Source of the DNA: a virus
Reading direction: 5' to 3' (one strand)
Virus record (IMG/VR): IMGVR_UViG_3300025679_000010
Span: 1-46,609 of that record
DNA: 46,609 nt
Shown in pieces: positions 1 to 46,609 of the stretch. The position numbers and the translations under genes were made by a program. Every line of letters starts with the position of its first letter. The stretch's first letter is position 1. The notes beneath the pieces are model-generated. The model saw nothing but the letters and a program-made list of their open reading frames with translations, was not told the DNA's origin and made no database searches.

Positions 1-11
1 GTGAGCGTGCG
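1..11. repeat. Terminal direct repeat, left copy
   Basis: GTGAGCGTGCG begins the window and is repeated exactly as its last 11 bases (46599-46609). This suggests a complete linear genome with a filled-in cohesive end, or a circular map opened here. A lambda-type terminase (4783-6756) makes short 5' overhangs in known relatives, which fits an 11-base cos. Direct end determination is lacking. Confidence 0.6.
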
Positions 12-151
12 CGCGTTAGGGCACTAGATTCGTCGCGTCAAAACCCTTGTGATTACAACATTATACGCGTCCAGGTGGGTTCTCCCCTTCTCTTTTGTGT
101 AAAAGAACTGCAAATTTGGAATATGAATTCCCCAATCCCCCGGAGCGTTTC
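12..151. other. Left-end non-coding leader
   Basis: About 140 bases precede the first gene. I see a short palindrome TTGTGATTACAA near 47-58 and an AT-rich TTATACG at 61-67, but no well-spaced -35/-10 pair. If the molecule is circular, transcription entering from the rightward genes ending at 46494 could read through into the modification operon. A cos-flanking terminase binding site could also lie here, but I cannot identify one. Confidence 0.3.
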
Positions 152-709
152 ATGGCGCTCGCGATAAAACTTGTTCCGGTCACAGACCTCAAACCGGCCG
201 CCTATAACCCCCGTGCAATTTCGCCCGAATCCCTGGAAGGCTTGAAGAGTTCGCTCACCCGGTTCGGCATGGTCGACCCCGTGATCGTAAACATGACCAC
301 CGGAAATATGGTCGGCGGACACCAGCGACTTACGGCCGCGATCGCACTCGGATGGAAAGAGGTTCCGTGCGTCCACGTCGCGCTCTCGCTCATCGAGGAG
401 AAGGCGCTCAACGTCACACTGAATAATCAGCGCATCTCCGGTCACTTCACCGACGGGCTTCAAACCCTTCTCGAAGAGATCCGTCTCGAGTTCGAGGATA
501 ATGACTTCACCGACCTGAAGCTCGACGAGCTCGTAATCGGCGACGCCTTCAGCGAAGGCGGATCGCACGTCGCGAACACCGAAGAAAATCTCGACGGGCT
601 CAAGCACACGTTCAAAGTAAAATGTCCGCCGGAAATTAAGGACGAAGTTCTGGTCATTCTCAAGCGCGCGTTCATCGAAACTTCGCTTGAAGGCGTGGAG
701 GTCGTCTAG
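152..709 (+). CDS. ParB-like N-terminal nuclease-domain protein
   Basis: A 185-residue protein with a ParB/sulfiredoxin fold. It has a 'tDLKPAAYNPR' strand-turn near residues 9-19 and the conserved GGHQRL motif around residue 53 that binds a nucleotide phosphate in this family. Start ATG 152 is chosen because GGAGC lies six bases upstream; an earlier in-frame start at 95 has no ribosome site. The stop TAG shares its last G with the GTG start of dpdA (TAGTG), so the two are coupled. Stand-alone ParB-like domains are common beside phage DNA-modification enzymes, where they may act in DNA binding or nicking. No segregation partner (ParA) or parS site is visible, so plasmid-style partitioning is unlikely. 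The exact role is unknown. Confidence 0.8.
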   Translation: MALAIKLVPVTDLKPAAYNPRAISPESLEGLKSSLTRFGMVDPVIVNMTTGNMVGGHQRLTAAIALGWKEVPCVHVALSLIEEKALNVTLNNQRISGHFTDGLQTLLEEIRLEFEDNDFTDLKLDELVIGDAFSEGGSHVANTEENLDGLKHTFKVKCPPEIKDEVLVILKRAFIETSLEGVEVV

Positions 710-1530
710 TGCTCAGCTTTCTTTGCGCATACCCTTACGTCGATAAAGGAGTCATCGAACTGATTCGCGCGAATGAAAAACGCGTGCGCTTCGTTCTCGA
801 CTCTGGGGCGTTCACCGCATGGAAATCCGGTAAGGAAATAAAACTCGATAACTACTGTAAGTTTATTGAAACCTTACCCTTCAAGCCCTGGCGTTATTTC
901 GCTCTCGATGTGGTCGGTGACCCCCACGGCACCCTCAAGAACTACGAAGCGATGCGAGCGCGCGGCTTCACCCCGGTCCCGATTTTCACGCGCGGAGAAG
1001 ACCCATCTGTCCTTGAGGATTATTACAAAACGAGCGACGTGGTCGGAATCGGCGGGCTCGTCGGCACGCAAGGGAATAAGGGCTTCGTCAAGGGGATCAT
1101 GAAACGCGTGAACGGTCGGAAGGTTCACTGGCTCGGCTTCACCAATTTCGATTTCGTAAAAGTTTATAAGCCTTATATGTGCGACTCGTCTTCATGGGAG
1201 GGTGGCGCCCGCTTCGGTGTCGCGCAACTTTACCTCGGGCGCGGTCACCGGGATAAGGTCTCGCGCGATGATTTTCGCAAGGGCATCAACGATCAATGCC
1301 CAAAGGTCCAGGCAATAAAACGCCTGGGGATGGACCCGCGCGAGGCCATAGACCCGAAAAAATGGGTGGGCGGGATGAGCTTTCAGCGGCGCCTTAGCGC
1401 TGCGAGTGGAGTCGCCCAGTCGCTCGACGTCGAGAAGCATCTCGGCACTCACCAGTTCTTGGCATTCACCACCGCATACGCCGGGAGAATGCTTGTCGAT
1501 GCATTCAATCAAATTAGGAGAGAGGCATGA
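709..1530 (+). CDS. dpdA: DpdA-like DNA 7-deazaguanine transglycosylase
   Basis: A 273-residue TIM-barrel enzyme of the tRNA-guanine transglycosylase superfamily, phage DNA type. The LDSGAFTAW motif (about residues 30-38) carries one of the two expected catalytic aspartates, and ALDVVGDP (about 64-71) is the next conserved strand. The four-cysteine zinc site of tRNA TGTs is absent, as in DNA-acting DpdA proteins. It would swap guanine in phage DNA for preQ0 or a relative. The start is GTG 709 with GGAGG eight bases upstream, overlapping the ParB-like stop. Its own stop overlaps the ATG of queC (ATGA). The four preQ0 synthesis genes that follow strongly support the DNA-modification reading. 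Substrate sequence preference cannot be read from the gene. Confidence 0.87.
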   Translation: MLSFLCAYPYVDKGVIELIRANEKRVRFVLDSGAFTAWKSGKEIKLDNYCKFIETLPFKPWRYFALDVVGDPHGTLKNYEAMRARGFTPVPIFTRGEDPSVLEDYYKTSDVVGIGGLVGTQGNKGFVKGIMKRVNGRKVHWLGFTNFDFVKVYKPYMCDSSSWEGGARFGVAQLYLGRGHRDKVSRDDFRKGINDQCPKVQAIKRLGMDPREAIDPKKWVGGMSFQRRLSAASGVAQSLDVEKHLGTHQFLAFTTAYAGRMLVDAFNQIRREA

Positions 1531-2192
1531 AAGTCGTCGTCGTTTTGTCGGGTGGAATGGATTCAAGCGCCGCGCTCGGATGGGCGAAGGGCGTCGGTGG
1601 TCACGCAATCATCGGCGCGCTGTCGTTCTGGTACGGCTCGAAACACAACGACCGAGAATGGGAATCGGCACAGGAAATCGCCGACCATTACGACGTTCGG
1701 ATCCAACGCGCGCGGCTTGACTTCGTGGCCGACACCTTCAAGAGTGACCTCCTGAAAACCGGAGGAGAAATTCCCGAGGGTCATTACGCAGATCCATCGA
1801 TGCAGCGAACCGTCGTCCCATTTCGGAACGGTATTATGTTGGCGATCGCCGCCGGATACGCCGAGAGTCTTGGCGCGGAAGCGATCGTTCTTGGGAATCA
1901 CTTCGGTGATCACGCTGTCTATCCAGACTGCCGGAAAGATTTTATCGACCCGATGGCTGCGGCGATCGAAGCCGGAACTTACGCAAAGATCAAACTCCTT
2001 TCGCCGTTCCTGAAGGCGACGAAAACCGACATCGCGAAGCACGGATTGTTGTGGGGAGTTCCGTTCGGGCTCACTTGGTCCTGCTACAAGGGCGGTCGAT
2101 TGCACTGCGGAAAATGCGGAACATGCGTTGAACGAATTGAAGCGTTCAAAGAAGCGGGAATTAAAGACCCGACGGAGTATCTTGAAGCATGA
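1527..2192 (+). CDS. queC: 7-cyano-7-deazaguanine (preQ0) synthase QueC
   Basis: A 221-residue ATP-dependent enzyme that converts 7-carboxy-7-deazaguanine plus ammonia to preQ0. The N-terminal PP-loop LSGGMDSSAAL (residues 6-16) binds ATP. The C-terminal zinc site has four cysteines in CYKGGRLHCGKCGTC, about residues 187-201. Length and motif order match bacterial QueC. ATG 1527 overlaps the dpdA stop. This is the last step of the preQ0 pathway and hands product to DpdA. No amidotransferase domain is fused, so it looks like plain QueC rather than the Gat-QueC type that makes the archaeosine-like base. Confidence 0.95.
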   Translation: MKVVVVLSGGMDSSAALGWAKGVGGHAIIGALSFWYGSKHNDREWESAQEIADHYDVRIQRARLDFVADTFKSDLLKTGGEIPEGHYADPSMQRTVVPFRNGIMLAIAAGYAESLGAEAIVLGNHFGDHAVYPDCRKDFIDPMAAAIEAGTYAKIKLLSPFLKATKTDIAKHGLLWGVPFGLTWSCYKGGRLHCGKCGTCVERIEAFKEAGIKDPTEYLEA

Positions 2193-2608
2193 TTGTTATT
2201 ATTCCTTGCGGCGCAAGAAAGTTAAAAAATAAAACCTTCGCAAAAGACCTATATATAGGCCCATATTTTAAAATGAATTTAAAATGGGCAAAAAGCGTTA
2301 CTCACGACGATTGTATTTTTATTTTATCTGCAAAACACGGTCTCCTAAACCTTTACTCAAAAATCGAACCATATGATTTATTTATGGGATCACCCGGCTC
2401 TGTAAGTTCTGAAACAATTAATAAGCAGGCAATTGATTTAAAAATTTTAGACCAGAATATTTTTGCTTTGGGTGGATCTAATTATATCTCTGCGTTAAAA
2501 AAAGCGGGAATAAAAGTTTGTGCGCCCGTAAGGGGACCAATGGGAGTTCAGATGGGAATTTTAAAAAAGAACATCGGCAAAAAACCAAAATGGGTTGAGG
2601 TAATTTAA
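2189..2608 (+). CDS. DUF6884-like protein in the preQ0 operon
   Basis: A 139-residue protein beginning IIPCGARKL, with AKDLYIGPYFKMNL (about 18-31), ILSAKHGLL (about 45-53) and PYDLFMG. These are the hallmarks I know from DUF6884/YaaA-related proteins. The cysteine, the lysine-rich loop and the KHGL strand look like a conserved active or binding surface. It is plainly A+T-rich, with runs of AAAAAT and many TTA/AAA/ATA codons, unlike queC before it and queD after it, so it was probably acquired separately. The start overlaps the queC stop (ATGA) and its stop overlaps queD (TAATG), so it is wired into the operon. It may act in substrate handling or further alteration of the deazaguanine base. 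That is inference from position only. Confidence 0.65.
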   Translation: MIVIIPCGARKLKNKTFAKDLYIGPYFKMNLKWAKSVTHDDCIFILSAKHGLLNLYSKIEPYDLFMGSPGSVSSETINKQAIDLKILDQNIFALGGSNYISALKKAGIKVCAPVRGPMGVQMGILKKNIGKKPKWVEVI

Positions 2609-3048
2609 TGTTCTCTTCGACGAAATCTTTTTGGAATTACCCGTGCTCGCATCGCCAATGGAAACACCCAGGTCAGTGCGCCTATATCCACGGGTATTCG
2701 CGGAGCTTCCATTTCACCTTTGGCGCTCACACTTTGACCGACACGCATTTCGTTGTCGACTTCGGAAGCCTCAAAGCGTTCAAGGCGAAGCTCGATGATT
2801 GGTTTGATCACACTCTTTTGATTAACGAAAACGACCCAATGCTGCCGGAATTCCGTGAATTAGAGGTCAAAGGAGCGGCAAAATTAACGGTTTTACCTAA
2901 CGTGGGAATGGAAGGAACCGCTCATTTTCTCTGGCTTCAGATGAACGAATTCCTCTTCACGGCGACCGGAGGAAGGGCTTTTTGCACGAAGGTTGAAGTC
3001 CGCGAGAACGATAAAAACAGCGGTATTTTTGAGGAGCTTCCAGAGTGA
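2608..3048 (+). CDS. queD: QueD-like 6-carboxytetrahydropterin synthase
   Basis: A 146-residue member of the 6-pyruvoyl-tetrahydropterin synthase family. In preQ0 synthesis QueD converts dihydroneopterin triphosphate to 6-carboxytetrahydropterin. The catalytic-cysteine and zinc region is near residues 13-32, with SH, then CAYIHGYS and FHFTF. The later DHTLLIN stretch corresponds to the family's conserved Asp-His. The usual HGH zinc motif reads HGY here, so one expected histidine ligand is a tyrosine. A nearby histidine, as in SFHF, might substitute. ATG 2608 overlaps the preceding stop, and the stop overlaps the queE GTG. Flanking queC, queE and folE make QueD far likelier than a biopterin enzyme. 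Confidence 0.87.
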   Translation: MFSSTKSFWNYPCSHRQWKHPGQCAYIHGYSRSFHFTFGAHTLTDTHFVVDFGSLKAFKAKLDDWFDHTLLINENDPMLPEFRELEVKGAAKLTVLPNVGMEGTAHFLWLQMNEFLFTATGGRAFCTKVEVRENDKNSGIFEELPE

Positions 3049-3671
3049 AAATGTATCGAATCAAGTCGGCTTTCGGGCCGACAATCCAGGGTGAGGGATC
3101 GGCCACCGGTACCGTCGTGAAGTTCCTGCGCTTCGCCGGGTGCAACCGGTGGACCGGACTCGAGAAGGATCGCGCGAAATCTGTCTGCTGGTATTGCGAC
3201 ACGGACTTCAGAGACGGCGTTCAGATGACGCCGATCGAAATTCTCGCATGGCTCGACCGGCTTGGTCCGGCGAAGGTCGTGGTTATCTCCGGCGGTGAGG
3301 CCACGCTTCAGATCGATGAGCCATTACTCCTCTCGCTCACGGCTCACGGCTACCGGCTTCACCTGGAAACGAACGGTTCTAGGGCGCTCGGTGATCTCGC
3401 CGGCTTCTTCGAGCATATTACTTGTTCGCCAAAGCAGAGTTTCGAAGAAACGAAACTTGAATACGCGACAGACCTGAAGCTTCTGTTCCCTCCCGTTCAA
3501 GAGTCCGTCACGATCGAGGGCTTCAAGAAGTTCGATTCGCATAATCAATTTCTCCAACCGGTTCACTGCGAAACGTACCAAGAGAATCTTCAGGCCACGA
3601 TCAAAAAACTGTACGAGAATCCTGAGTGGCGCTTGTCGCTCCAGACTCACAAAATCACGGGGGTTGAATGA
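3045..3671 (+). CDS. queE: Radical-SAM 7-carboxy-7-deazaguanine synthase QueE
   Basis: A 208-residue enzyme that rearranges 6-carboxytetrahydropterin to 7-carboxy-7-deazaguanine. It begins with the QueE-type [11 protein letters not shown] stretch (about 5-15). The iron-sulfur ligands are three cysteines spaced C-x14-C-x2-C (about residues 31-49, ending CWYC), the noncanonical spacing known for QueE rather than the CxxxCxxC of most radical SAM proteins. [11 protein letters not shown] (about 79-89) is the SAM-binding GGE strand. GTG 3045 overlaps the queD stop and has GAGGAG upstream; ATG 3051 is an alternative. The stop overlaps folE (ATGA). Confidence 0.94.
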
Positions 3672-4237
3672 GAGTATCGAAGGCGTCAAAAAAAGAAATG
3701 GATCTCGTGCGCGGAATTCTTATCGCGATCGGTGAAGACCCGACGCGCGAAGGCTTGCTCGACACTCCGAAAAGAGTCTCGAAATCTTGGAAAGAGATTT
3801 TCTCTGGCTATAAGCTCGATCCGGTAAAGATCCTCGCGACTGCGTTTAAAGACGGCTCGTGTGATGAGATGGTTATCCTGCGCGACATCGAATTCAGTTC
3901 GACGTGCGAACATCACATGCTCCCGTTCCGTGGAAAAGCGCACGTCGGCTACCTTCCGAACGGCTCCGTCGTCGGGCTCTCAAAGCTCGCGCGCGTGGTC
4001 GATTGCTTCGCGAAGCGTTTGCAGATTCAAGAGAAGATGACCACCCAGATCGCCGAAGCGATCAACGCCGCGCTGAAGCCAAAGGGTGTCGCGGTCGTCA
4101 TCGAAGCCCATCACCAGTGCATGAGCTGTCGGGGTGTGAATAAGCAAGGAACGACGATGGTCACTTCGTCGATGTCTGGGCGGTTCAGAGAAAGCGCGGA
4201 AGCGCGCGGCGAATTCCTGATTTTGATGCGCGGATAA
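3668..4237 (+). CDS. folE: GTP cyclohydrolase I FolE
   Basis: A 189-residue enzyme that opens GTP to 7,8-dihydroneopterin triphosphate, the first step towards preQ0. Family motifs are present in order: [14 protein letters not shown] (about 18-31), [10 protein letters not shown] (about 77-86) with the zinc-binding Cys-Glu-His-His, and HQCMSCRG (about 148-155) with the second zinc cysteine. Length matches bacterial type I enzymes. The start overlaps the queE stop, and three bases separate its stop from the terminase small subunit ATG, so the modification operon runs straight into the packaging genes. It lets the phage draw on the GTP pool without relying on host FolE. Confidence 0.96.
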
Positions 4238-4240
4238 TCT

Positions 4241-4786
4241 ATGGCGTTGATGAATTTTTCCGAGTACGCGAAGCATCGCGGGGTCACCCAGCAAGCGGTG
4301 AGCTATGCGGTACAGGAAGGCCGGATCACCGTCACGGTTGATCCGAAAAATGGGAAGCGCTTCATTGATTCAGAGCGCGCCGACGGCGAGTGGGATAAGA
4401 ATACTGATTACGCCAGGCACCCAGAAAAAGAGAGTGCGAAAGAGCGCCGTGAAAACGGGGCTGAGAAGGTTGAATCGGTTCCTGGGGCGGGATCGCGTAC
4501 CGGAAACACCCCGACCATAACCGAGTCGAAGCAGATCAAGGAAGCGTTCCTCGCGCGCATCGCGAAACTCGAATATGAGCGCATGTCAGGCAAGGTCGTA
4601 CCGCTCGACGAGATGAATCGCGAATGGTTGAAGGTGTGCGGCGCTGTAAAAACGAAACTTCTCGGAATTCCTTCAAAGCTCAAGGGGAAACTCGAACACC
4701 TTACGCTTGAAGATATCGCAACGATCGAAGACGAAATCCGAGCTGCGATGGCTGACCTCTCGGATAATCGCGGCGAGATGCTATGA
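4241..4786 (+). CDS. Terminase small subunit (Nu1-like)
   Basis: A 181-residue protein opening with a helix-turn-helix of Nu1 style (EYAKHRGVTQQAVSYAVQEG, about 6-25). A charged linker follows, then a helical C-terminal half with KLEYERMSGKVVP (about 110-122), typical of small terminase subunits that recruit the large subunit. It should bind the cos/pac region and position TerL. Its last codons overlap the TerL ATG (ATGA). If the ends of the window are cos, the binding site lies more than 4 kb from this gene, unlike lambda where cos adjoins Nu1. Confidence 0.85.
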   Translation: MALMNFSEYAKHRGVTQQAVSYAVQEGRITVTVDPKNGKRFIDSERADGEWDKNTDYARHPEKESAKERRENGAEKVESVPGAGSRTGNTPTITESKQIKEAFLARIAKLEYERMSGKVVPLDEMNREWLKVCGAVKTKLLGIPSKLKGKLEHLTLEDIATIEDEIRAAMADLSDNRGEML

Positions 4787-6756
4787 GTTCACCAGCCGTC
4801 GCCGTCCTGGTTGACGCGTTTTTCGAGCATCTCAGGCCACCGCCGCGCCTTCGGTTGAGTCAATGGGCCGACCGATACGCTTACCTCTCGGCCGAAAGCT
4901 CGGCAGAGTCTGGGAAATGGCGGAACATTCCGTATCAGATCGGAATGATGGACGCGATGACCGATCCACGGATCTGGAAGATCGTCGTAAAAAAATCAGC
5001 CCGCGTCGGATACACGAAAATCATCGGCCACCTTTGCGGGTACCATATCCATTATGACCCTTGCCCGATCGGGATCGTGCAGCCGACCGAGGGAGACGCC
5101 GAAGGGTATTCCAAAGAAGAAATTGCGCCGATGATCCGCGATACTCCGGTCATCGAAAAGCTCGTGTCCGATGCGAAGGCAAAAGACGGCTCGAACACGA
5201 TGACTCAGAAGATGTTTCCCGGTGGATCGCTCTCGCTGATCGGAGCGAATACGGCGACAGGGTTTAGACGGGTCTCTCGTCGGATTATGATTTTCGACGA
5301 AGTGGACGGGTATCCTCTTTCGGCAGGAACCGAAGGCGATCCGGTCAAGCTCGGAACGAAGCGAACCGAGTATTACTGGAACCGAAAAATCGTCATGGGT
5401 TCAACACCGACGACGAATCTTCTTTCGAGAATTACGCCTGAATTTGATGCGAGTGATAAGCGCTTTTATAATGTGCCTTGCCCGCACTGTCAGGCTGCGC
5501 AGGTTTTAAAATTTGCAAACCTGAAATGGATCGAAGGTCAACCGGAGACGGCGCATTTTGTCTGCGAAAAAAACGGATGCGTAATCGAGCACAAGTGGAA
5601 AAGGTGGATGGTGGAGCAAGCCCACCTCCGACAAGAAGCAGATCAGAAATCAGGATACGGATGGGTCGCAACCCGTCCAACGAAAGGCGTCGCCGGCTTC
5701 CATATCTGGGCAGCCTATTCCTATTCGCCTAACGCGTCTTGGGAGTCGATCGCTCGAGAATCAGAAGAAGCGAAGGCCGGAGGAATCGAGCTTTTAAAAA
5801 CTTTCATAAATACTTTGCTTGGAGAAGAGTGGCAAGAAAAGGGCGACGCACCTGAGTGGCGGCGTCTATACGATCGCCGCGAAGCATACCCTGTCGGAAT
5901 TATCCCAGAAGGCGGTCTCTTCATTACCGCTGGCGTCGACGTTCAAGGGAACCGTCTTGAAATGGGAATCTGGGCGTGGGGAGTCGGGCGAGATCGGTGG
6001 GCAGTCGACTATCAGATAATTCACGGAGACACGTCTGACCTTGGTCCCGAGGGTCCGTGGGCCGAACTTTCGAAAAGGATCAGCAAGTATTATAAAACGA
6101 GCGCCGGAGTCAGTCTTCCGATTCAGATGACCGCGATCGATTCCGGGTATAACACGCAGGTCGTCTATCAGTTCGTTCGCCGGTATCCGTCGAACCGCGT
6201 GATCGCGACCAAGGGCGTGGACACGCAGCTCCCGATTGTTTCGACACCGACTGCGGTGGACGTAGCGATCCAGGGGCGCAGACTGAAGCGCGGATTGCTG
6301 ATGTGGCCGGTCGGCGTTGGGACCGGGAAGACAGAAATCTATGGCTTTCTAAGAATGGAGAATCCGACCGACGAAGAAAAATTGGCGCGAGGGTACCCTC
6401 CCGGCTTCGTCCATTTTCCTGAGTTCAACGAAGATTGGTTCAAGCAACTCACCGCCGAAGTCCTCGTAAAAAAGCGAACGAAGGGTCGAAGTGGAATTCG
6501 GATGCACTGGGAGAAGCAATACGAGCGAAACGAAGTTCTCGACTGCGCGGTTCTCGCGCGAGCTGCCGCCGCCGTATTCGGGATCGATCGCTTCGGCGAG
6601 GAAGACTGGGCACAGCTTACCGGGTACATCGGCGAAGCGGTCACCACGAAGCCCGGAATGGTTCCGGCTGCGGAAGTTCTTCCCATTGACGAGAAAGCGC
6701 CGCAAAGCAGCATGGAACCGACACTCGTTCGAAAGCCTTCTCGCTCGTACCGATGA
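4783..6756 (+). CDS. Terminase large subunit (lambda GpA family)
   Basis: A 657-residue packaging ATPase-nuclease. Residues about 62-80 include KKSARVGYTK, the variant Walker A of GpA proteins. RIMIFDEVDGYP (about 167-178) is Walker B. A cysteine pair CPHC near 233 and a second Cys pair near 259 form the expected zinc region. ITAGVDVQGNRLE (about 382-394) begins the RNase H-like nuclease with its catalytic Asp. It moves DNA into the prohead and cuts concatemers, usually leaving a short staggered end in this family, consistent with the 11-base terminal repeat. Order TerS-TerL-gpW-portal matches lambda. Confidence 0.95.
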   Translation: MSSPAVAVLVDAFFEHLRPPPRLRLSQWADRYAYLSAESSAESGKWRNIPYQIGMMDAMTDPRIWKIVVKKSARVGYTKIIGHLCGYHIHYDPCPIGIVQPTEGDAEGYSKEEIAPMIRDTPVIEKLVSDAKAKDGSNTMTQKMFPGGSLSLIGANTATGFRRVSRRIMIFDEVDGYPLSAGTEGDPVKLGTKRTEYYWNRKIVMGSTPTTNLLSRITPEFDASDKRFYNVPCPHCQAAQVLKFANLKWIEGQPETAHFVCEKNGCVIEHKWKRWMVEQAHLRQEADQKSGYGWVATRPTKGVAGFHIWAAYSYSPNASWESIARESEEAKAGGIELLKTFINTLLGEEWQEKGDAPEWRRLYDRREAYPVGIIPEGGLFITAGVDVQGNRLEMGIWAWGVGRDRWAVDYQIIHGDTSDLGPEGPWAELSKRISKYYKTSAGVSLPIQMTAIDSGYNTQVVYQFVRRYPSNRVIATKGVDTQLPIVSTPTAVDVAIQGRRLKRGLLMWPVGVGTGKTEIYGFLRMENPTDEEKLARGYPPGFVHFPEFNEDWFKQLTAEVLVKKRTKGRSGIRMHWEKQYERNEVLDCAVLARAAAAVFGIDRFGEEDWAQLTGYIGEAVTTKPGMVPAAEVLPIDEKAPQSSMEPTLVRKPSRSYR

Positions 6757-22041: not shown

Positions 22042-22623
22042 ATGCATAAGATTGACTCAGTCGGCGCAGTCGTTTCGAAACCAGCGGAGAGAGCAGTCGG
22101 CGATGTCGTCGGGTTCTTCAGCCCTGGCGATCCTTCACTGGGTCAACCATCCACGATCGTGACGTACGAATGGCTGAACGCGGTTCAGGGTGAACTCACC
22201 GCAGTCATCGCCGCCGCCGGAATCGCGCTCGACAAAACGAGCAACGCTCAGCTTCTCGCGGCGCTCGCGATCCTGATAAATAATACTCTCGAAGCGGCCG
22301 CATTCGTCGTTCCGAACAACGCGACGACCGCGATCACTGGGTTGCTTTTTGACAGCGCGGTCTACCGGAGCGCTGAAGTAAAATTCGACCTCCGTCGTAA
22401 GACCGATTCATTCAACGGAATGTATAGCGGCGTTCTGAAGGCTGCTTACATCGCTGGCGCCTGGGTGATCCTTGGTCCGAACGGCGATGAGTCGGGTGAT
22501 GACCATGGGTGCACCTTTTCGATCAACTCTTCAACCGGTCAAATTTCCATCGTCGCGAACAACATGACCGGCACGAATTACGCCGCCACGATTGCCTATA
22601 AAGTTTCGCGCTTCGCGCTCTAA
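22042..22623 (+). CDS. Tail fibre-type protein, short
   Basis: A 193-residue protein directly after gp48, where fibre genes usually start. FFSPGDPSLGQPSTIVTYEWLNAVQGEL (given here in part, about 27-55) is a motif common near the start of phage tail fibres. Residues about 85-193 are a beta-rich Asn/Thr/Ser domain (ATTAITGLLFDSAVYRSAEV, then FSINSSTGQISIVANNMTGT). It is short for a complete fibre, so it may be the base part or adaptor on which a longer protein is mounted. It ends two bases before the strong ribosome site of the next gene. Confidence 0.72.
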   Translation: MHKIDSVGAVVSKPAERAVGDVVGFFSPGDPSLGQPSTIVTYEWLNAVQGELTAVIAAAGIALDKTSNAQLLAALAILINNTLEAAAFVVPNNATTAITGLLFDSAVYRSAEVKFDLRRKTDSFNGMYSGVLKAAYIAGAWVILGPNGDESGDDHGCTFSINSSTGQISIVANNMTGTNYAATIAYKVSRFAL

Positions 22624-22633
22624 GGAGGAACTT

Positions 22634-24679
22634 ATGAACTTCAAGAAAATCCCTGCTCTTTTCGCCGCGCTCATTTTGGCCGGTTCAGCTTTCGCCGCAA
22701 CGAACTATCCGATCGGGTCTGACAAGATCACTCTCGGAAAACCGACCGCTGCTGATCGAAGCATCGTCATCAATAAGGGGTCAGGCGCCGCGAACCCAGT
22801 CATCAAATGGGATAACAGCGCCGGAAAACTTAAGTTCGCGAACGACGGCGTAAGCTTCAAAGCGTTCGGTTCAGGCGGCGGCGGTGGTTCCGGCGGGGTC
22901 AACCTCCTGAGCGATAACCCTGACGCTGAATCTGGAGTCGCGAATTGGACCGCTTCGGGCGGTACCTTCACCACGACGACGACCGCTGCGAACGTGAATA
23001 GCGGAGCGGCTGCGTTCTCGTTCACACCTTCAGCCGGTGGTCAGACCGTCACGTCAGATGCGTATGCAACGCTCGGCGGGATGGAAGGGAACAACGGATG
23101 CTCGGCGGCTCTGTATTACAAGACCGCTGAAGGTACGAATAAATATATCGTGAACGCGATGACCGGCTCGACGGTTCTTGGAACCGCGACGCTCGACTCT
23201 TCTTCGACTTACAAGCTGGTGAATGTCCCGTTTCCGTGTCAGACGACGGGAACGACGGTGAAGCTTCAGGTCTCTGCGGCGGCTTCGACTCCTTCGAGTC
23301 CGATTTACTGGGACGATGCCTTTGATGGGATTGGTTTCAATACGTCGCAGGTTAGTCAGGCGCGATGGATCGGGAGCGTATCATATGCCCCGACGGCATC
23401 TTGCGTTTGGACTGGAAGCAGCACGACTACGCCGGCAAATTTTGCGGCGCAAAGTTCTTGCCCGACCCCAACTGCGTCAGGTGCCATCTCTGTACCCGCA
23501 ACTAAAATTCCAGGATTTATTCTTCCATCTGGAGGTCCGGGGATTTATCGAATTGTTGCAAAGAGTTCTTTCCGTGTAACGGGAAATGAAAACTGCGGAT
23601 TCAGATTTTCAGACGGAACCAATAGCACGGTTATCGCTCAGGTTACCGGTCAGGTCTCGGCTCAAACTGTATCGTCTCCAATGATTGAGGGTGAGTTCAA
23701 TTACTCTACAGCGCCTGCTGGAAATACGACGATTCAAATTCAATCTTCTTGCGGTATCACCGGAACTGATGCCCAAATTTTAGATTCACAGACAAATCAA
23801 TCTGGATTCGAAGTTTCGGTTTACTACTTCCCATCCGGCCAAGAAACCGCCGTCCGCGCGGATTCTTCTTCGGTCAACTGGAGCGGAACCTCGACATTAA
23901 ATGCGTCCACAACGTCGACCAGCTACGGCGTGGTTAGCACGTCGCTGACTGGCGCTATTTCGACGACTACCTCTAAAAACCTGACGTGTACGGCTGCTTC
24001 AAGCTCTCTCGGAGTGACATGTTCGCTTCCAAGAACCGGCACCTATCTCGCTTGTTTCTCCGGATACTTTTATAACAGTACTGCCGGCGATCTTATCAAT
24101 GTGAAGCTCGTAGACGGATCTGGAACTAGCATCACTGGCGAACAATCGATCGACCAGCCCACCGGCTCTCCTGGATACCAGTCATCCATGGGAGCTTGCG
24201 GGAACTATACCGCCAACTCATTAACGACCACGTTTCAGCTATACGGAAAAGTCAGCGGCGGCACCGGTACTTTCTTCCCGACTTCGTTTTCGGTCGTCTC
24301 GATCGACGGCGGCTCGACGAACATGCAGGTCTTCAAGGGGTTGCGAACGACGCAGGGATCGGGAGCTCGATACGGGGAATCGGCGCTCATCGCCGATAGC
24401 TCCTCCGAAGGAACGGGTTGCGGATCATCTCCGTGCACGGTCTATAATTCGAGCGCGAGCTGGATTACCGTGACGCGTGCATCGGCCGGGACCTACACCG
24501 GGACGATGTCAGGTTTCTCCGGTAAGCCTGTATGCGTCTGCTCAGTATCCCGGATCGCCGGACTCCATGCTCCTGAATGCGCGGTCACCTCGGCGACGAG
24601 CGTAAGCATCGGAATGTATAACTCGTCGAACTCGGCTCAAGATGAACCGATCTCGATCATGTGCGACGGTCCTCACTAA
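22634..24679 (+). CDS. Large fibre-like surface protein with Sec signal peptide
   Basis: A 681-residue protein. Start ATG 22634 is preceded by AAGGAGG, a near-perfect ribosome site, in preference to an overlapping earlier start at 22592. Residues 1-21 (MNFKKIPALFAALILAGSAF) plus Ala look like a signal peptide with an A-x-A cleavage site. After a glycine-rich hinge near 77-86 comes a carbohydrate-binding-like segment (GVNLLSDNPDAESGVANWTA, about 87-106), then Ser/Thr/Gly-rich beta repeats with paired cysteines to the end. Its place suggests a receptor-binding fibre or spike. A signal peptide is unusual for a virion protein and suggests export to the periplasm or cell surface instead. I cannot decide between these. 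Confidence 0.7.
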   Translation: MNFKKIPALFAALILAGSAFAATNYPIGSDKITLGKPTAADRSIVINKGSGAANPVIKWDNSAGKLKFANDGVSFKAFGSGGGGGSGGVNLLSDNPDAESGVANWTASGGTFTTTTTAANVNSGAAAFSFTPSAGGQTVTSDAYATLGGMEGNNGCSAALYYKTAEGTNKYIVNAMTGSTVLGTATLDSSSTYKLVNVPFPCQTTGTTVKLQVSAAASTPSSPIYWDDAFDGIGFNTSQVSQARWIGSVSYAPTASCVWTGSSTTTPANFAAQSSCPTPTASGAISVPATKIPGFILPSGGPGIYRIVAKSSFRVTGNENCGFRFSDGTNSTVIAQVTGQVSAQTVSSPMIEGEFNYSTAPAGNTTIQIQSSCGITGTDAQILDSQTNQSGFEVSVYYFPSGQETAVRADSSSVNWSGTSTLNASTTSTSYGVVSTSLTGAISTTTSKNLTCTAASSSLGVTCSLPRTGTYLACFSGYFYNSTAGDLINVKLVDGSGTSITGEQSIDQPTGSPGYQSSMGACGNYTANSLTTTFQLYGKVSGGTGTFFPTSFSVVSIDGGSTNMQVFKGLRTTQGSGARYGESALIADSSSEGTGCGSSPCTVYNSSASWITVTRASAGTYTGTMSGFSGKPVCVCSVSRIAGLHAPECAVTSATSVSIGMYNSSNSAQDEPISIMCDGPH

Positions 24680-25121: not shown

Positions 25122-25156
25122 CCCCTGACCTGTGCCTAGCTGGTCGGGGGTTTTTT
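25122..25156 (+). terminator. Terminator of the rightward late genes
   Basis: A 9-bp stem CCCCTGACC/GGTCGGGGG (one G-U pair) with an 11-base loop, then TTTTTT. It overlaps the last codons of the leftward integrase gene, so it stops late transcription from running antisense into int. Confidence 0.82.
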
Positions 25157-26320
25157 CTTTCCCTCAAGTGCGTCTCGGATCTGGTTTGCGTTTTCAATGG
25201 CGGCATCTCGGACCACCGAATCTCTGGCGTGGATATATCTCGCGGTTGAATTCAGATGCTTGTGTCTAAGCATTGAGGCGATCAGTCTTTGGGACGCCCC
25301 GGACTCGTGCGCGTTGGACGCGAAGATGTGGCGAAGGTCGTGAATTCTTAGCTTCGGTAGACCGGCGGAAACCCGAATTTTTTGCCAATGTAAGTAGATC
25401 CCAGCGAATGGTCTCTTTGAAAATCGCCCCGGGAATATAAACGGACTCCCATTCGATCCAGATTGCGCCGCAAGAATCTCCTCAAGCACCCAGTCAGGAA
25501 GGTTCACCCATTCACCGTCGAGGCCACCGCTCTTTGTTTCGGGTAGGAAAAGCATTTTCCTGTGATGATCGACATGCTGAAATTGAGCGCGCAGGATCTC
25601 AGTCTTTCGACAGCCGGTGGCCAGGTAAAGTTTGAGCGCCAGTTTGACACGCTCATTCGGATACTCGGCGATCGCCGTTCCCAGCCGTTCGAACTCCTCT
25701 GGACTCGCCGTGGCCGTCCGGCGGCGCTGCGGATAGTAAGCCACGTCTTCGGTCGGGTTTGAATTCCGCTGGCGCCACCCCCAGACCTCACAGAGCGCGA
25801 ATGCCTTGATGAGCATTCGGATAATGCAGTTCGCTTGGATGGGGGTCTTAATCATTCCCGCGTGCAGCTTCAAGACATCCCCATAGGTCACCTGATTAAC
25901 GCGGAGCTTCCAAAATGGGGTTTCCTCGATTCGCTTCCAGAGGCGCCGGTACTCAAGCGCCGTCGATCGCTTCGTATAGGCTGCGACGTGTTCGCTCATG
26001 TGCCGGTCGCGAAGCTCGGCCATTCCGGGCCCGGACCTGAGTGCGAACTTTTCCCCTGCCGGATCTTCGCCGTGGGCAACCCGGTAGAGCGTGTCCTTTG
26101 CCCATTGGCGCGCTTGATCGAGCGTCGAGACGTTCGTCGGGGAGAAGGTCAGGAACCGCTGTACGCCCCCATGTGTGCGGTAGGTGACGATATACGCCTT
26201 ACGTCCTCCCGAGCTAACCCGAACCCCGAAGCCGGTCGGGTTGTCGTCCCAAAGGTAGACCGATCGCTTATCGGGTGGACAGGTGGATTCCTTGATCTCG
26301 CGGACGGTGAGGGTGGGCAT
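25136..26320 (-). CDS. int: Tyrosine integrase
   Basis: A 394-residue site-specific recombinase. The N-terminus TVREIKESTCPPDKRSVYLW, then DNPTGFGVRVSSGGRKAYIV, is the DUF4102-type arm-binding domain of P4-like integrases. The catalytic domain has the first Arg in ATGCRKTEIL (about 229-238), HDLRHIFASNAHE (about 320-332) with His-x-x-Arg, LRHKHLNSTARYIH (about 348-361) with the late His and the nucleophile Tyr. TAGGAG lies eight bases before ATG 26320. It inserts the circular phage genome at attB. Its own terminal codons carry the opposing late terminator. No Xis with clear similarity is adjacent; a small HTH protein lies far off at 37531-37827. Confidence 0.95.
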   Translation of the reverse strand: MPTLTVREIKESTCPPDKRSVYLWDDNPTGFGVRVSSGGRKAYIVTYRTHGGVQRFLTFSPTNVSTLDQARQWAKDTLYRVAHGEDPAGEKFALRSGPGMAELRDRHMSEHVAAYTKRSTALEYRRLWKRIEETPFWKLRVNQVTYGDVLKLHAGMIKTPIQANCIIRMLIKAFALCEVWGWRQRNSNPTEDVAYYPQRRRTATASPEEFERLGTAIAEYPNERVKLALKLYLATGCRKTEILRAQFQHVDHHRKMLFLPETKSGGLDGEWVNLPDWVLEEILAAQSGSNGSPFIFPGRFSKRPFAGIYLHWQKIRVSAGLPKLRIHDLRHIFASNAHESGASQRLIASMLRHKHLNSTARYIHARDSVVRDAAIENANQIRDALEGKKKPPTS

Positions 26321-32550: not shown

Positions 32551-32619
32551 GGCGCCGTGCGGGGATTGAACCCGCGACCCTCCCCGTTTAGGGGCGCTCT
32601 ACCGCTGAGCTAACGGCGC
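32551..32619 (-). tRNA. tRNA-like gene with shortened anticodon arm
   Basis: Reading the - strand, acceptor arm GCGCCGT pairs perfectly with ACGGCGC, the D arm is GCTC-AGCGGTA-GAGC, and the T arm is GCGGG-TTCAATC-CCCGC. The anticodon arm is only CCCC-TAAAC-GGGG (32582-32594), 13 bases instead of 17, so the normal 5-bp stem and 7-base loop cannot form. An alternative is a 3-bp stem with loop CTAAACG and anticodon AAA. CCA is not encoded in the usual place, and TTTTTTT follows (32541-32547). It is either a decayed tRNA or a tRNA-shaped RNA with another function. A decoding identity cannot be given. Confidence 0.75.
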
Positions 32620-46598: not shown

Positions 46599-46609
46599 GT
46601 GAGCGTGCG
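46599..46609. repeat. Terminal direct repeat, right copy
   Basis: GTGAGCGTGCG, identical to bases 1-11. Overlap of this length is shorter than usual assembly overlaps, which favours a biological end such as a filled-in cos overhang. Confidence 0.6.

What the first reader, a model, noticed from the sequence alone, without database searches (positions are those of the whole stretch)
152..4237. preQ0 DNA-modification operon joined to the packaging genes
Seen: ParB-like, DpdA, QueC, DUF6884-like, QueD, QueE and FolE lie in one strand with overlaps of 1-4 bases and only three bases before terminase. Known: FolE-QueD-QueE-QueC make preQ0 and DpdA inserts 7-deazaguanines in phage DNA. Inferred: this phage's genomic guanines are partly replaced, probably by preQ0 because no QueF reductase or Gat-QueC is present, and the modification is timed with packaging.
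Basis: partly seen in the sequence, partly recalled or inferred. Interest (0 to 1): 0.85.

Follow-up and report, generated by a model that had tools for sequence, protein, structure and literature searches.

The report
Phage deazaguanine DNA-modification operon with add-on enzyme
This uncultured phage carries a complete gene set for swapping guanines in its own DNA for a modified base, plus one recently acquired gene that probably changes the modified base into a different one than first guessed, which would matter for how such phages escape bacterial restriction enzymes.

Summary
In detail: at 152-4237 seven same-strand genes, ParB-like, DpdA, QueC, DUF6884, QueD, QueE and FolE, overlap by 1-4 bases and end 3 bases before the terminase. 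Related operons ending at the terminase are already known in actinobacteriophages (Rosebushvirus, CRB2). That the DNA gets a 7-deazaguanine is well supported. Its product has the YaaA fold and is a remote homologue, with a shared C-x3-K motif, of the N-terminal part of DpdC, the bacterial enzyme that turns dPreQ0 into dADG. In relatives it is an optional one-gene cassette, usually straight after QueC, with clean empty sites. In this window it is the lowest-GC 420 nt (33.8% against about 55%), so recently acquired. I predict dADG at about 50%. Against that, a Rosebushvirus carries a DUF6884 from another clade while Rosebush DNA is dPreQ0, and dADG phages MED16, CP220 and 7-11 lack DUF6884. ParB lies beside DpdA in 56 of 58 loci and carries a C-terminal tail that tail-only scans found only beside DpdA (14 of 14). 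The terminase follows in 26 of 31 loci and belongs to at least four families. New variant of a known system.

The parts
152..709 (+). ParB/Srx-superfamily partner gene with ParB_N domain and a C-terminal tail (about residues 140-185, ENLDG motif)
   Evidence: Pfam ParB_N E 1e-8; model matches ParB/Noc CTPase N-domains; tail found only beside DpdA in tail-only scans, 14/14
709..1530 (+). dpdA, DNA guanine transglycosylase (DpdA type with conserved His, GTG start)
   Evidence: phrog_887 E 1.9e-29; D31, D67, GG115-116, H140, D159 invariant in the 10-row alignment
1527..2192 (+). queC, 7-cyano-7-deazaguanine (preQ0) synthase, no GAT domain
   Evidence: Pfam QueC E 2.4e-56, TIGR00364 167.6 bits over cut-off 150.3; no GATase in contig
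2189..2608 (+). DUF6884 / YaaA-fold gene, DpdC-like candidate dPreQ0 hydratase; low-GC single-gene cassette
   Evidence: PF21818 E 3e-20; AF2 pLDDT 94.6 and Foldseek YaaA 5caj E 6.6e-4; profile match to bacterial DpdC E 1e-6; GC 33.8%, z -5.6
2608..3048 (+). queD-like 6-carboxytetrahydropterin synthase (CxxxHGY instead of CxxxHGH)
   Evidence: PTPS E 2.3e-21; phrog_2389 E 5e-35; alignment A5
3045..3671 (+). queE, 7-carboxy-7-deazaguanine synthase, Cx14CxxC type
   Evidence: TIGR04508 154 bits, E 4.5e-45
3668..4237 (+). folE, GTP cyclohydrolase I
   Evidence: Pfam E 1.3e-74; TIGR00063 244 bits over cut-off
4241..4786 (+). terminase small subunit, 3 bases after folE
   Evidence: phrog_57 E 6e-30
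4783..6756 (+). terminase large subunit, GpA type
   Evidence: GpA ATPase and nuclease domains, E 1.6e-79 and 2.9e-82; phrog_15 E 6e-239

Best explanation
This is a self-contained phage operon for 7-deazaguanine DNA modification. FolE, QueD, QueE and QueC make preQ0 from GTP. DpdA exchanges selected guanines in phage DNA for preQ0. The ParB-like protein, through its DpdA-linked C-terminal tail, probably recruits or loads DpdA on DNA, as the ParB-superfamily DpdB does in bacterial dpd islands. The DUF6884 protein, a plug-in cassette, probably then hydrates the nitrile of dPreQ0 in DNA to the amide, giving dADG as DpdC does. Shown here: gene identities, operon structure, remote DUF6884-DpdC homology, cassette behaviour and ParB-DpdA linkage. 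Inferred from characterised homologues: preQ0 synthesis and insertion (about 0.9). Inferred more weakly: ParB as recruiter (about 0.55) and dADG as end product (about 0.5). The stated confidence is for the statement with dADG as end product.
For: Gene identities. FolE+QueD+QueE+QueC+DpdA is the published minimal dPreQ0 set. DUF6884 is DpdC's domain and DpdC hydrolyses dPreQ0 to dADG. Bacterial dpd islands fetched here have DpdC whose N-terminal part matches DUF6884 (E 2e-5 and 5e-5). Operon DUF6884s match DpdC models at 3e-6 to 0.04. hhalign against DpdC gives E 1e-6, prob 91. C7 and K11 are invariant in 14 DUF6884s and the C-x3-K motif is present in both DpdCs. The only significant PDB fold match is YaaA/DUF328, the family named for DpdC. 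Empty sites: L062 against L061, and L018 against L022. Independent pairings with DpdA: phiFN37 ParB-DpdA-DUF6884-preQ0 transporter, Acinetobacter HD01, Bacilli MAG L095. ParB beside DpdA in 56/58 loci; tail-only scans returned 14/14 DpdA loci.
Against: Ares (Rosebushvirus) carries a DUF6884 beside its terminase although Rosebush DNA is dPreQ0 with only a trace of dADG; that copy is in a separate supported clade and on the other strand. Phages with measured dADG (MED16, CP220, 7-11) have no DUF6884, so other routes exist. Many DUF6884 phages (Angel, Lemuria) appear in no DpdA hit list seen, so the family has other roles. The phage protein lacks DpdC's C-terminal ~170 residues, and the homology is remote. 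Bacterial DpdB is DndB-type (PF14072), not ParB_N. The QueD zinc-site change is unexplained.
Confidence: 0.5

Rival explanations
1. The end product is dPreQ0. DUF6884 does not act on the modified base; it is a YaaA-like DNA-binding or repair protein that rides in the operon, for example dealing with lesions made by base exchange.
For: Same operon without DUF6884 gives dPreQ0 in Rosebush-type phages. Ares carries a DUF6884 elsewhere and its genus makes dPreQ0. B. subtilis YfjM (DUF6884) binds abasic and ribonucleotide lesions (PMC11701544). Actinophages Angel and Lemuria carry DUF6884, and neither appeared among the DpdA hits listed.
Against: The operon-type proteins form a clade apart from the Ares type, are repeatedly slotted straight after QueC, and pair with DpdA even where no preQ0-synthesis gene lies beside them (phiFN37); the DpdC N-terminal homology points at the nitrile step.
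Confidence: 0.35
2. DUF6884 acts on free preQ0 or another intermediate, or makes a different derivative (for example dCDG), so the DNA carries neither dPreQ0 nor dADG.
For: Its usual slot is beside QueC, the enzyme that makes the nitrile. Other 7-deazaguanine DNA bases are known, by recall (Cui et al. 2023 was not held).
Against: The only function known for a homologue in this pathway, DpdC, is dPreQ0 to dADG.
Confidence: 0.1
3. The operon is present but silent or non-functional, and virion DNA is unmodified, for example because the QueD-like protein is inactive or the cassette disturbs translation.
For: QueD has CxxxHGY where the zinc-site motif is HGH. No promoter-like or terminator-like site was found on the coding strand in 1-5000.
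Against: All seven frames are intact with tight overlaps; the HGY form is shared by many relatives and by Acinetobacter phage HD01, so it is conserved; the host may supply intermediates.
Confidence: 0.05

Closest known systems
Mycobacteriophage Rosebush group (Ares, Rosebushvirus; also CRB2 and Funsized) preQ0 operon
   Same: First gene (ParB-like in CRB2 and Funsized; 'transcriptional regulator' in Ares, ParB_N-like by profile), DpdA, QueC, QueD, QueE, FolE, then terminase; Rosebush DNA has dPreQ0
   Different: No DUF6884 inside the operon; the ParB-like proteins of Ares and Funsized lack the tail seen here; DpdA only about 30% identical; terminase and head modules differ
Bacterial dpd islands, modification part DpdA-DpdB-DpdC (Salmonella Montevideo type)
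   Same: A transglycosylase, a ParB-superfamily partner and a DUF6884/DUF328-related protein act together; product dPreQ0 and dADG
   Different: Here DpdB's place is taken by a ParB_N protein rather than DndB type; the DpdC-like protein is a single 139-aa domain against about 310 aa; no restriction genes; preQ0 genes are in the operon
Fusobacterium phage phiFN37 ParB-DpdA-DUF6884-transporter cluster
   Same: ParB next to DpdA next to DUF6884
   Different: A queuosine-precursor transporter sits where the synthesis genes are here; its ParB lacks the tail
Escherichia phage CAjan / 9g (Queuovirinae)
   Same: preQ0 pathway plus DpdA of the His-containing type
   Different: No ParB annotated beside dpdA in CAjan, dpdA next to DNA polymerase genes rather than terminase, no DUF6884
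YaaA (DUF328), E. coli
   Same: Fold: only significant PDB match of the DUF6884 model
   Different: YaaA is an oxidative-stress DNA-binding protein, not part of a deazaguanine pathway

Membership tests
Phage preQ0/DpdA DNA-modification pathway | FolE, QueD, QueE, QueC and a DpdA in one genome | tested here: met
   QueC and FolE over NCBIfam cut-offs; QueD and QueE below the NCBIfam equivalog cut-offs but clear by Pfam/PHROGs
Phage preQ0/DpdA DNA-modification pathway | 7-deazaguanine present in virion DNA | not testable with these tools
   Uncultured IMG/VR record; needs mass spectrometry
DpdA (His-containing type) rather than DpdA2 | TGT-like Asp residues and the conserved His reported absent in DpdA2 | tested here: met
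   D31, D67, D159, H140 invariant with Finch, HD01 and Nicole72 proteins; equivalence of H140 to the published His196 rests on alignment, not on a solved DpdA
DpdC | Homology of the DUF6884/DUF328 domain with C-x3-K motif | tested here: met
   hhalign E 1e-6, prob 91; DpdC against PF21818 E 2e-5 and 5e-5, below Pfam cut-off; invariant C7 and K11
DpdC | Full-length (about 310 aa) DpdC architecture | tested here: not met
   Phage protein is 139 aa and matches only about residues 42-105 of DpdC; I therefore do not call it DpdC
DpdC | Conversion of dPreQ0 to dADG in DNA | not testable with these tools
   No biochemistry; comparative test on phages of known chemistry does not fit a simple rule
DpdB | DndB-type (PF14072) ParB-superfamily ATPase beside DpdA | tested here: not met
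   Window protein is ParB_N (PF02195) and does not match PADLOC DpdB models
ParB CTPase fold | ParB N-terminal fold | tested here: met
   Foldseek to pNOB8 ParB-N, ParB-CDP and Noc structures, E 5.6e-7 to 2e-6
ParB CTPase fold | CTP binding and sliding on DNA | not testable with these tools
   A GGHQR motif is present in the window protein, activity not shown

The most novel reading that the evidence does not exclude
Phages carry a modular DNA-base pathway in which a single-domain DpdC-like enzyme is gained and lost as a one-gene cassette in the slot after queC, switching the genome's modified base from dPreQ0 to dADG, while a dedicated ParB-type protein with a DpdA-specific tail recruits DpdA to DNA. 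Changing the base by one gene would be a quick counter to restriction systems that recognise the old base.
Probability: 0.35. Interest if true: 0.75.

Novelty: new variant of a known kind. Interest (0 to 1): 0.5.

Why it matters
The last step of dADG formation in phage DNA is an open question in the field (the MED16 paper says so). This operon offers a small, testable candidate, a 139-aa protein, with natural presence/absence pairs that differ at that spot by just that gene. It also ties DpdA to a specific ParB-type partner across an uncultured group, which makes the unclear role of DpdB-like proteins testable in a compact phage system.

Tried and rejected
1) A ParB-DpdA fusion in L029 (one 462-aa frame) looked like proof of physical partnership. 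I rejected it: the ParB end reads on correctly (...YEFK stop, overlapping the DpdA start) one base out of frame, so the fusion is a single-base frameshift, probably an assembly or sequencing error (frame read by eye from its sequence). 2) The simple rule 'DUF6884 present means dADG' fails on known phages. 3) DpdC in Burkholderiales and its class is rare: none in 274 genomes at E 1e-20 and two in 399 at E 1e-6; both were used as references. 4) Sequence search of DUF6884 against PDB with the single protein gave only chance Kelch matches; the profile and the fold search found YaaA. 5) DpdA and QueD of the window have no usable PDB match by single-sequence search. 6) The first ParB-tail scan could not be run, since the alignment was too divergent; two closer sub-alignments worked. 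7) Rosebush itself, Yuan 2018, Gedara 2023 and Cui 2023 were not held; Ares stood in for Rosebush, and published statements are cited through papers that were held. 8) A direct ArcS relationship of DpdC (a DpdC model rings in Haloferax volcanii) was not followed up.
Full report
WHAT IS THERE. The window is a 46,609-base virus record. Its seven genes at 152-4237 are as described: ParB-like, DpdA, QueC, DUF6884, QueD, QueE, FolE, with overlaps of 1, 4, 4, 1, 4 and 4 bases and a 3-base gap to the terminase small subunit (identities). The phage looks like a temperate myovirus: tail sheath, tape measure, baseplate and integrase genes and RecT- and exonuclease-like genes. An 11-base direct repeat at the two contig ends (GTGAGCGTGCG) hints at a complete circular map, although IMG/VR classes it as linear.

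RELATIVES. Scanning IMG/VR with a DpdA alignment gave about 60 related operons (37-60% identity to the window DpdA) plus several weak ones, and genome contigs gave a few more. No cultured phage has a DpdA match that covers 80% of the query, so this DpdA group is essentially uncultured. A local profile annotation shows a ParB gene directly upstream of DpdA in 56 of 58 loci with sequence there; the two exceptions are a frameshifted ParB (L029) and an ORF whose ParB overlaps in another frame (L050), so neither is a real absence. QueC, QueD, QueE and FolE follow in several orders.

TERMINASE LINKAGE. With my GpA-type profile, terminase follows the operon in 11 of 39 loci that have 2.5 kb of downstream sequence. 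For 20 further loci I scanned one large downstream ORF with PHROGs: 15 are terminase large subunits, from families phrog_2, phrog_38, phrog_9, phrog_10250 and phrog_979 (some of these profiles overlap), and 5 are not (L035, L039, L044, L053, L059; L039 has a late transcriptional activator instead). That is 26 of 31 examined; L048 lay outside the 2.5-kb rule, and L043's terminase lies about 3 kb downstream. The examined set was not a random sample. The linkage therefore persists although the terminase itself differs, which fits a late-gene location, but timing was not measured. The arrangement is already documented: CRB2, Ares, Funsized, Nicole72.

DUF6884 AS A CASSETTE. In relatives DUF6884 is in the operon of a minority, usually straight after QueC. 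On the DpdA tree, 12 of 53 rows carry it and 10 changes are needed, at least 6 forced by supported branches; this is no more clustered than shuffled labels (121 of 500 shuffles as low). Two pairs show clean empty sites: L062 against L061 aligns on both sides with 415 extra bases lying exactly between QueC and QueD, and L018 against L022 has about 450 bases in place of 23. In the window the gene has 33.8% GC (29% at third positions) and is the lowest-GC 420-base stretch of the contig (z about -5.6). In some relatives the cassette is also low in GC, in others (L088, L062) not. I read this as a recently acquired one-gene cassette in the window.

WHAT DUF6884 MAY DO. DpdC of bacterial dpd islands carries DUF6884 and hydrolyses dPreQ0 to dADG. 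I fetched two bacterial islands with DpdA, DpdB-like and DpdC genes. Their DpdC N-terminal parts match PF21818 below its cut-off, operon DUF6884s match DpdC models weakly, and the profile comparison gives E 1e-6 over 61 columns (the DpdC profile has only two sequences). Cys7 and Lys11 are invariant in 14 proteins, and the same C-x3-K motif opens DpdC. The predicted structure is confident and matches only YaaA. Separate associations of DUF6884 with DpdA exist in Fusobacterium phage phiFN37, Acinetobacter phage HD01 and a Bacilli MAG. A Cys-thioimide route from nitrile to amide is my inference, by analogy with preQ0 chemistry in QueF (own knowledge).

COUNTER-EVIDENCE. I tested the rule on phages of measured chemistry. 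dADG phages MED16, CP220 and 7-11 have no DUF6884; CAjan (dPreQ0) and 9g (dG+) have none; Ares, of the Rosebush genus (dPreQ0), has one, on the opposite strand after the terminase. The Ares-type protein and the operon type fall into separate supported clades (99/96), except that two long-branch copies (the second L016 copy and L087) group with the Ares side. Phages without a known DpdA also carry DUF6884. I therefore put dADG at about one half.

PARB PARTNER. The window protein is ParB_N, not the DndB-type of bacterial DpdB, so it is not DpdB by family, although both are ParB-superfamily and DpdB is described as a ParB-like ATPase that helps DpdA. CRB2's authors already suggested a dpdB role for the ParB next to DpdA. 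Its model matches ParB and Noc CTPase domains. A C-terminal tail separated by a low-confidence linker (residues 130-147) is detected in 61 of 72 ParB ORFs of the group. It is not detected in six tested ParB proteins from other phage contexts, nor in five dpd-linked ParBs of cultured phages, nor by tblastn in 50,697 phage records beyond chance. Two scans of IMG/VR with the tail alone returned 14 loci, all with DpdA next door. The scans start from dpd-linked sequences and find only close relatives, so exclusivity is not proven.

CONCLUSION. A known kind of system in a new variant: a complete preQ0-DpdA operon with a dedicated ParB partner and a recently acquired DpdC-like add-on, placed at the terminase. 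Its chemistry, dADG or dPreQ0, is undecided but cheaply testable.

Noticed in passing
window 2608-3048 and alignment A5: QueD of this group has CxxxHGY where QueD zinc sites have CxxxHGH, and many relatives also lack the first His (F instead); shared with Acinetobacter phage HD01. Unexplained; activity unknown.
   Followed up: partly
window 25136-26320 (-): Integrase gene: a temperate phage carrying a full DNA-modification operon; if expressed in lysogens the host chromosome could be modified too.
   Followed up: no
window 1-11 and 46599-46609: 11-base direct repeat GTGAGCGTGCG at both contig ends; may mean the contig is a complete circular genome.
   Followed up: partly
window 32551-32619 (-): ARAGORN calls a tRNA-Phe with anticodon AAA, an unusual anticodon; may be spurious.
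   Followed up: no
window 22592-24679 (+): 695-aa ORF after the baseplate genes with no Pfam or PHROGs match.
   Followed up: no
L039:4823-5554: A late transcriptional activator lies about 1 kb after the operon, in line with late expression in that phage.
   Followed up: no
L029:6845-8230: Apparent ParB-DpdA fusion explained by a one-base frameshift.
   Followed up: yes
L120 (Fusobacterium phage phiFN37): ParB-DpdA-DUF6884-queuosine precursor transporter: a compact set that probably imports preQ0 instead of making it.
   Followed up: partly
L109 (Streptococcus phage Javan124): A ParB-like domain N-terminal in an adenine methylase, followed by a cytosine methylase, upstream of the terminase: the same kind of slot as the dpd operon.
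   Followed up: no
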